Shown: positions 52,886 to 55,465 of the stretch, in pieces
How positions within the stretch are numbered: the first letter of the stretch is position 1
Layout of the letters: each line of letters begins with the position of its first letter
Assembly: GCF_001507545.1 (NCBI RefSeq)
Contig: NZ_LQBP01000001.1
Coordinates: forward strand, 372,001-436,000
From: Ruegeria profundi
Lineage (GTDB): Bacteria > Pseudomonadota > Alphaproteobacteria > Rhodobacterales > Rhodobacteraceae
Reading direction: 5' to 3'
DNA: 64,000 nucleotides
The notes under the pieces: model-generated
The model's database searches: none
The model's input: only the letters and a program-made list of their open reading frames with translations
Told to the model about the DNA's origin: nothing
Program-made: the position numbers and the translations under genes

Positions 52886-52912
52886 TTGACGACTTCAGCG
52901 CCCGCCCATAAT
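52886..52912 (+). promoter_or_regulatory. Probable promoter of the ilv leader and operon
   Basis: TTGACG at 52886-52891 and CATAAT at 52907-52912 with a spacer of about 15 bases, placed just ahead of the leader peptide. The spacer is slightly short, so the boxes are probable rather than certain. Confidence 0.5.
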
Positions 52913-52943
52913 GTCCCTCCAAGCTAAAAAGGAGCCTCTGGCG

Positions 52944-52991
52944 ATGAAAACGCTAGTCGTAATCGTAGGAACAACGCGCATGGGCCGGTAA
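52944..52991 (+). CDS. ilvL: ilv operon leader peptide
   Basis: A 15-residue frame, [15 protein letters not shown], preceded by AAGGAG. Five consecutive codons are for Leu, Val, Val, Ile and Val, the amino acids made by the pathway encoded downstream. This is the classical sensor of a transcription attenuator: when charged branched-chain tRNAs are plentiful the ribosome finishes the peptide and terminator formation follows; when scarce it stalls and the antiterminator forms. Confidence 0.88.
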
Positions 52992-53045
52992 CGGTAAACC
53001 ATAATCGAACCCATGCGCCTCCGAAAAATCTCGGGGGCTTTTTTT
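52976..53045 (+). promoter_or_regulatory. Transcription attenuator of ilvBN (antiterminator/terminator pair)
   Basis: GCGCATGGG (52976-52984), inside the leader peptide, pairs perfectly with CCCATGCGC (53010-53018) to make the antiterminator. The latter overlaps the first arm of the terminator, GCCTCCGA (53017-53024), which pairs with TCGGGGGC (53031-53038) over a 6-base loop and is followed by seven Ts. The overlap of two bases plus steric conflict makes the structures exclusive. The terminator ends 41 bases before the ilvB start. Confidence 0.85.
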
Positions 53046-53086: not shown

Positions 53087-54838
53087 ATGACACGTGAGAT
53101 GACCGGCGCAAAGATGGTGGTTCAAGCCCTCAAGGATCAGGGCGTGGACACGGTATTCGGATACCCTGGTGGCGCCGTCCTACCGATCTATGATGAGATC
53201 TTTCTGCAAAACGACATTCGTCACATTCTGGTGCGGCATGAGCAAGGCGCGGTACACGCTGCCGAAGGATATGCCCGCTCGACCGGCAAGCCGGGCGTCG
53301 CGCTTGTGACCTCGGGTCCCGGTGCCACCAACGCGGTGACCGGCCTGACGGATGCGTTGATGGACTCGATCCCGATTGTGGTTCTGACCGGTCAGGTGCC
53401 GACCTTCATGATCGGCTCGGACGCATTCCAAGAGGCTGATACGGTGGGCATCACCCGCCCTTGCACCAAGCACAACTGGCTCGTCAAGGAAACGGACACG
53501 CTGGCCGAAACGGTGCACGAGGCGTTTCATGTCGCCACCTCGGGCCGTCCGGGGCCGGTATTGATCGACATTCCCAAAGACGTTCAGTTTGCGTCCGGGA
53601 AATACAGCCCGCCGAAACCGTCGACCTCGCATTACCAGCCGGTTCTGAAAGGCGATCTTGAAGAGATCACAGAGCTGGTTGCTGCGATAGAGACGGCGAA
53701 AAAGCCCGTCTTTTACACCGGTGGCGGTGTCATCAACTCGGGTCCTGCGGCCAGCCAATTGCTGCGCGAACTTGTTGACGCGACGGGCTTCCCGATCACC
53801 TCGACCCTTATGGGCCTTGGCGCATATCCGGCGTCCGGCGAAAACTGGTTGGGCATGCTGGGCATGCATGGTCTTTACGAGGCCAACCTTGCGATGCATG
53901 ACTGCGACCTGATGATCAACATTGGCGCGCGGTTCGATGACCGGATCACCGGACGGATTGATGCGTTCTCGCCAAAGTCAAAAAAGGCGCATATCGACAT
54001 TGATCCATCGTCGATCAACAAGGTTATCCGCGTGGACATACCGATTGTTGGCGATGTGGCTCATGTGCTTGAAGACATCCTGAAGGTCTGGAAGGCGCGC
54101 GGGCGCAAGACCAATGCCGCCGCTGTCAAGAAGTGGCAGGCGCAGATCAGCGAATGGCGCAAGGTGAATTGCCTTGCCTACACCAACAGCGAAAAGTCGA
54201 TCAAACCACAATACGCGCTGCAACGCCTTGAAGAACTGACCAAAAACCACGATCGCTACATCGCGACCGAGGTTGGTCAGCATCAGATGTGGGCGGCACA
54301 GTATTTGGGTTTCGAAGATCCTAACCGCTGGATGACATCTGGCGGATTGGGGACGATGGGTTACGGCTTTCCGGCCTCCATTGGCGTGCAAATGGCCCAT
54401 CCTGACGCGCTGGTCATCAACGTGGCGGGCGAAGCATCGTGGCTGATGAACATGCAAGAGATGGGCACAGCCGTTCAATACCGCCTGCCCGTTAAGCAGT
54501 TCATCCTGAACAACGAACGTCTGGGCATGGTGCGCCAGTGGCAGGAACTGCTGCATGGTGAGCGGTATTCGCATTCCTGGTCCGAGGCTCTGCCCGATTT
54601 TGTCAAACTCGCCGAAGCGTTTGGGGCCAAGGGTATCTTGTGCTCGGACCCTGCCGATCTTGATGATGCGATCATGGAAATGATCAACTATGACGGCCCG
54701 GTGATCTTTGACTGCCTGGTTGAAAAGCACGAAAATTGCTTCCCCATGATCCCGTCCGGCAAGGCACATAACGAGATGCTGCTGGGTGAGGCCGAAACGC
54801 AGGGCGTGATCGACAGCAAAGGCTCGGTTCTGGTTTAA
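53087..54838 (+). CDS. ilvB: Acetolactate synthase large subunit
   Basis: A 583-residue thiamine-diphosphate enzyme making acetolactate or acetohydroxybutyrate, first common step of Val/Leu/Ile synthesis. Motifs: [14 protein letters not shown] and [21 protein letters not shown] (catalytic Glu), [15 protein letters not shown]-binding middle domain with [14 protein letters not shown], and the ThDP-binding C-terminal part ([17 protein letters not shown], then [15 protein letters not shown]). Length is usual. It is regulated by the attenuator just upstream. Followed by ilvN after 66 bases. Confidence 0.97.
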
Positions 54839-54904: not shown

Positions 54905-55465
54905 ATGTCTGCCCTACATATCAAAAAAGGCGCCACACGCCATTCTGCCTATAACCTACGCCCAACATTTTCCGACCTGCAGGAACGCCACACGATTGCG
55001 CTTTTGGTCGAGAATGAACCCGGTGTCCTGGCACGCGTGATCGGGCTGTTTTCGGGCCGTGGCTACAACATCGAAAGCCTGACCGTGGCAGAGGTGGACC
55101 ATACCGGGCATCTCAGCCGCATTACCATCGTGACCGTCGGCACACCGCAAGTTATTGAACAGATCAAGGCGCAGCTGGGCCGGATCGTCCCCGTCCATGA
55201 AGTGCATGACCTGACCGTTGAAGGGGACGCGGTTGAGCGCGAGCTTGCCATCATCAAGGTTGTCGGCGCGGGCGACAAACGGGTCGAAGCGCTGCGGCTG
55301 GCTGATATTTTCCGCGCCAACGTGGTCGACAGTACGTTGGGCTCCTTCATCTTTGAGATCACCGGCGCACCGGACAAAATCGATGCGTTTGCTGACCTGA
55401 TGCGCCCGCTGGGTCTGGTTGAAGTGGCGCGCACCGGCGTCGCAGCACTGCTTCGCGGAGAGTGA
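54905..55465 (+). CDS. ilvN: Acetolactate synthase small (regulatory) subunit
   Basis: A 186-residue regulatory subunit with an N-terminal ACT domain, TIALLVENEPGVLARVIGLF followed by RGYNIESLTVAEVDHTGHLSR, that binds valine for feedback inhibition, and a second ALS-type domain (AGDKRVEALRLADIFRANVVDSTLGSFIFEITG). It carries a 25-residue N-terminal extension before the ACT domain. Gene names ilvN and ilvH are used interchangeably in this group. A strong terminator follows. Confidence 0.95.
   Translation: MSALHIKKGATRHSAYNLRPTFSDLQERHTIALLVENEPGVLARVIGLFSGRGYNIESLTVAEVDHTGHLSRITIVTVGTPQVIEQIKAQLGRIVPVHEVHDLTVEGDAVERELAIIKVVGAGDKRVEALRLADIFRANVVDSTLGSFIFEITGAPDKIDAFADLMRPLGLVEVARTGVAALLRGE

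What the first reader, a model, noticed from the sequence alone, without database searches (positions are those of the whole stretch)
52886..53045. Complete branched-chain leader-peptide attenuator ahead of ilvBN
A 15-residue leader with Leu-Val-Val-Ile-Val codons, an antiterminator (9-bp perfect match between the leader coding part and 53010-53018) and an overlapping terminator with seven Ts lie in order before ilvB. Every element of a ribosome-mediated attenuator is present in 160 bases. Attenuators of this type are well known in enterobacteria, less often shown in marine alphaproteobacteria.
Basis: partly seen in the sequence, partly recalled or inferred. Interest (0 to 1): 0.6.

Follow-up and report, generated by a model that had tools for sequence, protein, structure and literature searches.

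The report
Amino-acid attenuator before ilvBN genes
The stretch before the ilvBN genes is a leader-peptide switch that very probably lets the cell make more branched-chain amino acids when they run short; it is a standard kind of switch, and what is unexpected is that sister copies of it sit before drug-pump-type transporter genes in related bacteria.

Summary
Folds with a ribosome footprint masked give the expected switch. A detector that asks for no fixed sequence finds leader plus terminator before ilvB in 180 of 187 loci of the family, 170 of them with an antiterminator reaching the terminator, and leader plus terminator in 0 of 935 shuffles and 0 of 187 reverse complements. Alphaproteobacterial ilvB/ilvIH leader attenuators were described in 1994 and 2004 (seen as citations), so this is a new member of a known kind.

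Particulars: nearly invariant arms, a stop codon in a hairpin loop inside the antiterminator, only 2 nt shared by arms and terminator, no protector hairpin.

The surprise lies outside the window: covariance models find a homologous element, with a valine-rich leader, before Bcr/CflA-family transporter genes in 11 genomes of other alphaproteobacterial families and as second copies in 8 of the same family. No expression data were available; amino-acid-dependent read-through is inferred.

The parts
52886..52914 (+). probable promoter: TTGACG (52886-52891), 17 nt, TAATGT (52909-52914)
   Evidence: read directly; TTGAC...ATAATGTC in 54 of 54 genus loci; not found by the consensus scan
52929..52934 (+). 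ribosome-binding site AAGGAG of the leader peptide
   Evidence: similar motifs before relatives' leaders (by eye)
52944..52991 (+). leader peptide [18 protein letters not shown], control codons CTA GTC GTA ATC GTA at 52953-52967
   Evidence: leader of the form xxxLVVIVG..RMGx in 54 of 54 genus loci; CTA is 3.3% of Leu and GTA 7.8% of Val codons in 44 window ORFs but 106 of 203 and 220 of 429 in 152 family leaders
52976..52984 (+). antiterminator 5' arm (codes for part of Arg-Met-Gly)
   Evidence: 9 perfect pairs with 53010-53018; 99.2% of cells paired in 106 relatives that were selected for the motif
52985..52994 (+). stop-codon hairpin CCG-GUAA-CGG, the stop UAA lying in the loop
   Evidence: 146 of 163 distinct contexts of relatives against a shuffle mean of 34.75; both-sided changes
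53010..53018 (+). antiterminator 3' arm, overlapping the terminator by 2 nt
53017..53045 (+). intrinsic terminator: 8-bp stem 53017-53024/53031-53038 and T7 53039-53045
   Evidence: 6 of 8 pairs with both-sided changes
53087..54838 (+). ilvB, acetolactate synthase large subunit (regulated gene)
54905..55465 (+). ilvN/ilvH, acetolactate synthase small subunit

Best explanation
A ribosome-mediated transcription attenuator of the ilvBN operon. Transcription starts just downstream of 52914 and a ribosome begins the leader peptide. If charged tRNA for Leu, Val or Ile is scarce the ribosome stalls at codons 4-7; arm 52976-52984 stays free, pairs with 53010-53018 and takes away the two basal pairs of the terminator next to the U-tract, so RNA polymerase reads on into ilvBN. 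If supply is good the ribosome reaches the stop codon, covers arm 52976-52984, the terminator forms and most transcripts end near 53045. With no ribosome the RNA folds into the antiterminator, so there is no protector hairpin and an untranslated leader should read through. Shown: sequence anatomy, conservation, structure support, computed switch. Inferred: start site, stalling, footprint, read-through and its dependence on amino acids.
For: All parts in order. Masked-footprint folds: Leu4, Val5, Val6 or Ile7 in the A site gives antiterminator pairs of 0.96 or more and basal terminator pairs of 0.04 or less; Val8, Arg12 or the stop codon in the A site gives all terminator pairs 0.86 or more. 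Same test in 151 distinct relatives (stall = second BCAA codon in the A site): antiterminator above 0.5 in 147 when stalled, basal terminator above 0.5 in 137 at the stop, the full switch in 115. Family conservation 180 and 170 of 187, controls 0. Both-sided changes in antiterminator + stop hairpin (6 pairs) and terminator (6 pairs). Divergent loci keep leader, terminator and complementary arms with other sequences. Control codons are rare ones, CUA being the codon whose replacement lowered the sensitivity of a leu attenuator (passage in PMC1183508). The gene behind is the BCAA pathway enzyme.
Against: No RNA-seq, reporter or ribosome-profiling data. Antiterminator and terminator share only 2 nt, so a shortened terminator hairpin coexists with the antiterminator in the folds (inner pairs up to 1.0) and might still terminate in part. 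With Val8 in the A site seven antiterminator pairs and the whole terminator coexist. The full computed switch fails in 36 of 151 relatives, and basal terminator pairs exceed 0.5 in 23 of 151 even when stalled. Ten of the 180 loci with leader + terminator have no antiterminator reaching the terminator. In control (b) structures slid by 1-3 nt have up to 10 cells with both-sided changes against 9 observed (in fewer pairs: 0-3 against 6). 10 of 10 sampled genomes of one genus (g64) have no match to model R1, and the one ilvB upstream of it that I read (L264) has no leader or terminator, so the element is dispensable there.
Confidence: 0.92

Rival explanations
1. The short terminated RNA and/or the leader peptide mainly act in trans, as the tryptophan attenuator RNA and peptide of Sinorhizobium do, and the near-invariant arms are a seed or binding site.
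For: The arms GCGCATGGG/CCCATGCGC are nearly identical across most of the family although pairing alone would allow change; a precedent for trans action of an attenuator RNA and peptide in an alphaproteobacterium exists (abstract start of PMC7298713 in the listings; passages of PMC10117765).
Against: The element stays directly before ilvB and has no second copy in the own genome (arm pattern; model R1 below E 0.4); divergent loci change the arms completely but keep the pairing. Trans action would be an addition rather than an alternative.
Confidence: 0.15
2. A riboswitch or protein-binding RNA: a ligand binds the conserved arms and stop hairpin and controls the terminator, the ORF being incidental.
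For: Unusually strong sequence conservation and a conserved GNRA-like loop (GUAA or GUGA).
Against: The ORF, its Leu/Val/Ile codons and its distance to the arm are kept (last BCAA codon 8 nt before the arm in 126 of 152); leaders diverge in sequence but not in amino-acid type; no Rfam family matches here at the gathering thresholds.
Confidence: 0.04
3. A constitutive leader terminator that only lowers basal ilvBN expression, with the ORF as chance.
For: Antiterminator and terminator overlap by only 2 nt; in ten divergent loci the detector sees no overlap at all.
Against: 0 of 935 shuffled regions give leader + terminator; rare control codons are conserved; the arms keep pairing through changes.
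Confidence: 0.03

Closest known systems
ilvBN attenuator of Caulobacter crescentus (Tarleton et al. 1994; not held; seen only as cited and described in passages of PMC4117421)
   Same: Alphaproteobacterium, same operon, leader with tandem branched-chain (Ile and Val) codons, rho-independent terminator, read-through under low aminoacylation.
   Different: The sequence of that leader was not available to me, so homology of the arms is untested.
alphaproteobacterial ilvB/ilvIH leader-peptide attenuators of Vitreschak et al. 2004 (not read; seen as a citation in passages of PMC2573895, PMC1273637 and PMC6123439)
   Same: Same class of element before the acetolactate synthase operon of alphaproteobacteria, predicted by comparison; PMC1273637 calls an ilvB leader peptide previously described.
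   Different: I could not check whether this family or Bcr/CflA genes were in that survey.
E. coli trp/his/ilvGMEDA/ilvBN leader-peptide attenuators (general knowledge; E. coli ilvBN leader of 32 residues with 11 BCAAs in a passage of PMC6123439)
   Same: Leader peptide, control codons, alternative antiterminator and terminator.
   Different: Leader half as long (15 codons, 5 BCAA codons); no protector hairpin in the folds; arms share only 2 nt with the terminator; stop codon in a hairpin loop inside the antiterminator. The comparison of structures rests on general knowledge.
uORFC-8-2, the cysS leader of Rhodobacterales (passage in PMC8632094)
   Same: Predicted ribosome-mediated attenuator of the same bacterial order.
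   Different: Cysteine codons and cysS gene; its sequence was not compared.

Membership tests
ribosome-mediated (leader-peptide) transcription attenuator | short translatable ORF with ribosome-binding site in the 5' leader | tested here: met
   translation itself not tested
ribosome-mediated (leader-peptide) transcription attenuator | clustered codons for the amino acids made by the downstream operon | tested here: met
   CTA GTC GTA ATC GTA; Ile/Leu/Val-rich leader + terminator in 180 of 187 loci; ilvBN identified
ribosome-mediated (leader-peptide) transcription attenuator | intrinsic terminator between leader and first gene | tested here: met
ribosome-mediated (leader-peptide) transcription attenuator | antiterminator exclusive with the terminator and with its 5' arm in or beside the leader ORF | tested here: met
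   the overlap is only 2 nt, so exclusivity concerns the two basal terminator pairs
ribosome-mediated (leader-peptide) transcription attenuator | conservation of the anatomy in relatives | tested here: met
   170 of 187 with all parts, controls 0; model R1 in 180 of 196 genomes of the order
ribosome-mediated (leader-peptide) transcription attenuator | read-through depends on supply of the cognate amino acids | not testable with these tools
   needs RNA-seq or reporters
trp/his-type three-structure attenuator with protector (1:2) hairpin | hairpin that sequesters the antiterminator arm when the leader is untranslated | tested here: not met
   the free RNA folds into the antiterminator (probability above 0.5 in 133 of 151 relatives)
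described Rfam RNA family | match at the gathering score | tested here: not met
   only a tRNA in the whole window

The most novel reading that the evidence does not exclude
The ilvB attenuator is one copy of a transferable valine/branched-chain attenuator module. A homologous module (leader of the type MxxxVVVVGxRRMxR, stop-codon hairpin, CCCATGCGC arm and terminator) controls Bcr/CflA-family MFS transporters in a range of alphaproteobacteria, so these so-called drug pumps would be switched on by branched-chain (mainly valine) starvation or by ribosome-stalling inhibitors, and may carry branched-chain amino acids or related compounds.
Probability: 0.6. Interest if true: 0.65.

Novelty: new member of a known kind. 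Interest (0 to 1): 0.42.

Why it matters
It puts a kind of regulation known from a few alphaproteobacteria on a firm footing across a major family of marine bacteria, with exact parts for a test. The sister element before Bcr/CflA transporters would give an inducer and a substrate hypothesis for transporters usually annotated only as multidrug efflux, testable with one reporter strain.

Tried and rejected
A start-codon hairpin (CUGGCG-AUGAAAA-CGCUAG) seen in the first fold looked functional; across 106 family members it pairs in 41.8% of cells and 94 of 500 shuffles do as well, so I dropped it. Pairing of the Shine-Dalgarno region with the terminator's 3' side and U-tract, also in the fold, is expected of any purine-rich site and should come too late for the termination decision (inference); not pursued. 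The consensus promoter scan found nothing. In one search twelve minus-strand loci were read in the wrong orientation; corrected. The two nearest MFS homologues of the window's own genome (L285, L286 of 5 matches) show no such leader by eye. ilvB upstreams of 26 loci from other families gave no BCAA leader + terminator with the detector (0 of 26; 9 with a terminator; 450 nt searched, start codons approximate), though L069 looks like one by eye.

Rows dropped and selections: of 110 representatives four (L114, L137, L196, L255: misplaced start, truncated or N-containing) were not aligned, leaving 106. Those came from 162 loci found by a pattern demanding the arms, so the antiterminator percentages and the folds are biased upwards; the 170 of 187 is not, as that detector asks only for pairing. 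The printed rows were cut in the middle (about L166-L178 unseen); its counts were printed whole and repeated. The 187 loci partly repeat the same genomes (80 named, 107 unnamed records); 163 distinct stop-codon contexts. In one search the laxer criterion (2 G-C pairs) gives 155 of 163, but also 134, 121 and 94 when slid 4, 5 and 6 nt downstream; with 3 G-C pairs the slid values are 10 or less. Of the 11 genomes outside the family with an R1 match at E 0.01, six lie before an MFS gene (five best and G093), two do not look like the element (L283, L284) and three (G095, G100, G464) were not inspected. Weak second hits L308-L310 do not show it either; L311 was not read.

Paper searches without use: led only to the papers cited, or to nothing (0 papers).

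Full report
What is there. The stretch 52886-53045 holds, in order, a promoter-like pair (TTGACG 52886, 17 nt, TAATGT 52909), a Shine-Dalgarno site (52929), a 15-codon ORF 52944-52991 ([15 protein letters not shown]) with CTA GTC GTA ATC GTA at codons 4-8, arm 52976-52984, arm 53010-53018 and a terminator 53017-53038 followed by seven Ts. ilvB starts at 53087 and ilvN at 54905; NCBIfam names them acetolactate synthase large and small subunits. 'The family' below is the tool's family f1: Rhodobacteraceae in the broad GTDB sense (recalled); NCBI puts Ruegeria in Roseobacteraceae. Rfam at gathering thresholds knows no family here.

Chance. An ORF with five consecutive Ile/Leu/Val codons, a terminator and an antiterminator of 8 bp or more in order occurs once in the 64-kb window and in none of 30 dinucleotide shuffles.

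How it switches. With a ribosome footprint (13 nt upstream to 15 nt downstream of the first P-site base; an assumption from general knowledge) masked, Leu4, Val5, Val6 or Ile7 in the A site gives antiterminator pairs of 0.96-1 and basal terminator pairs of 0.04 or less. Val8, Arg12 or the stop codon in the A site gives all terminator pairs at 0.86-1; with Val8 seven antiterminator pairs coexist with it. Without a ribosome the antiterminator forms. So a ribosome at control codons 4-7 leaves the arm free and a terminating ribosome covers it. In 151 distinct relatives the median antiterminator probability is 0.98 with the second BCAA codon in the A site and 0.00 at the stop, the median for the basal terminator pairs 0.05 and 0.95; 115 of 151 show the complete switch at a 0.5 threshold. 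The antiterminator removes only the two terminator pairs next to the U-tract; that this suffices is inferred.

Conservation. In 54 of 54 loci of the genus (window included) the leader has the form xxxLVVIVG..RMGx and TTGAC...ATAATGTC is kept. Across the family, in 187 loci (80 named, 107 unnamed incl. the window's; some genomes twice), 183 have a terminator, 180 an Ile/Leu/Val-rich leader plus terminator, 170 also an antiterminator that reaches the terminator stem. The same detector gives 12, 0, 0 in 935 shuffled regions and 13, 0, 0 in 187 reverse complements. A covariance model (R1) built from 106 relatives matches 180 of 196 genomes of the order at E 0.01 and in the own genome only this locus below E 0.4. 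Of the 16 genomes without match, 10 belong to one genus (g64); the one g64 ilvB upstream I read, L264, lacks leader and terminator.

Structure. On A1 (selected for the arms) 97.4% of antiterminator and stop-hairpin cells pair and 6 of 12 pairs show changes on both sides (shuffles mean 0.9; slid structures 0-3 pairs, but up to 10 cells against 9). The terminator: 94.6%, 6 of 8 pairs. Double changes include GCACATGGG/CCCATGTGC (L126, L132) and GTGCATGGG/CCCATGCAC (L247). Some loci with quite other sequences keep complementary arms by eye: L230 GCGCAGTCGC/GCGACTGCGC, L266 GCGCATCG/CGATGCGC, L232 GCGCGGG/CCCGCGC; in these the arm ends a few bases before the terminator stem, so the detector does not count them (10 loci with leader and terminator are not counted), and how they exclude termination is open.

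A stop-codon hairpin. The leader's stop codon mostly lies in the loop of a small hairpin, CCG-GUAA-CGG or CCG-GUGA-CGG (149 and 27 of 214 loci). A stem of 3 or more pairs with 3 or more G-C pairs around the stop codon is found in 146 of 163 distinct contexts against a shuffle mean of 34.75 (maximum 44) and 10 or less when slid; loci with wholly different stems keep one (L060, L232, L257, L265, L266), while four of the 15 divergent loci (L059, L123, L219, L263) have none. Its role is unknown; a pause signal for RNA polymerase or a spacer that speeds arm pairing are guesses.

Codons. CTA is 3.3% of Leu and GTA 7.8% of Val codons in 44 long ORFs of the window but 106 of 203 and 220 of 429 in 152 family leaders (leaders share ancestry, and the yardstick is the window only). 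A passage of PMC1183508 reports that replacing CUA by CUG in a leu attenuator lowered sensitivity; the same paper warns that rare codons are not the rule in all attenuators.

Sister elements. In 289 genomes of the class R1 also matched 11 genomes outside the family; the five best (E 5e-15 to 4e-6) and G093 lie directly before an MFS transporter gene, none at ilvB. A second model (R2) from 13 such leaders found, at E 1e-4 in 385 genomes of the class, 11 genomes outside the family; all 11 matches precede an MFS gene (six of the 11 loci were in R2's own training set). In 11 family genomes with two or more R1 hits, the second hits better than E 0.001 (8, in 8 genomes) also precede one. The best NCBIfam match of the 18 proteins scanned is TIGR00710, Bcr/CflA efflux, in 18 of 18, above its cut-off in 15 (L307, L322 and L325 just below; L305 not scanned). 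Their 18 leaders hold 71 Ile/Leu/Val in 162 residues (positions 2-10), 49 of them Val, against 21.6% and 6.9% in the window's proteins; 16 of 18 have three or more (sequences are related and the reading frames were chosen by eye, so the P values there are optimistic). Many end like the ilvB leader (R/C-M/L-x-R; 10 of the 18 were aligned), some do not (L306, L282, L325). R2, trained without any ilvB leader, finds the window's element at E 2.4e-17 and matches 127 of 149 family genomes, for the most part at the ilvB position by comparison of coordinates (not counted; exceptions such as G054 and G057 not inspected). I take the two as homologous. The biological sense is open: induction by valine shortage suggests a branched-chain substrate; induction by translation inhibitors would fit an efflux pump.

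Literature. Alphaproteobacterial ilvB leader attenuation is known: PMC4117421 (passages) describes the Caulobacter ilvBN leader citing Tarleton 1994; PMC1273637 (passages) mentions a previously described ilvB leader peptide citing Vitreschak 2004; PMC2573895 (passages) lists an ilvIH cis element in S. meliloti citing the same. Neither original paper was read. For the Bcr/CflA leaders, (CflA, leader peptide, attenuat) returned 0 papers and one search returned 3, of which I read passages of two and only the listing of PMC7298713; nothing on such leaders was seen. The library is open-access only, so this is weak evidence of absence.

Verdict. Observation confirmed, interpretation supported, an ordinary member of a known kind for the window itself; the transporter-linked sister elements are the part worth following.

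Noticed in passing
L277, L278, L279, L280, L281, L319, L322, L324-L327 (other families); L300-L307 (same family): Homologous attenuator-like element with a valine-rich leader peptide directly before Bcr/CflA-family MFS transporter genes.
   Followed up: partly
G116 and nine further g64 genomes; L264: One genus of the family has no match to the ilvB attenuator model (10 of 10 sampled), and the one ilvB upstream read has no leader or terminator: apparent loss of the attenuator.
   Followed up: no
L123, leader [10 protein letters not shown]: A TAG stop ends the leader just before the antiterminator arm while arms, CCGGTAGCGG and terminator are intact; the switch may be altered there.
   Followed up: no
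G117: L201 and L236: A genome with two ilvB genes, each with its own leader, arms and terminator.
   Followed up: no
L069 upstream of ilvB in a genome of another family (G064): By eye a leader MTTQLVLIRQPLSGRD with arms CAGCCGCTG/CAGCGGCTG and a GC-rich hairpin with a weak T-tract: perhaps an independent attenuator.
   Followed up: no
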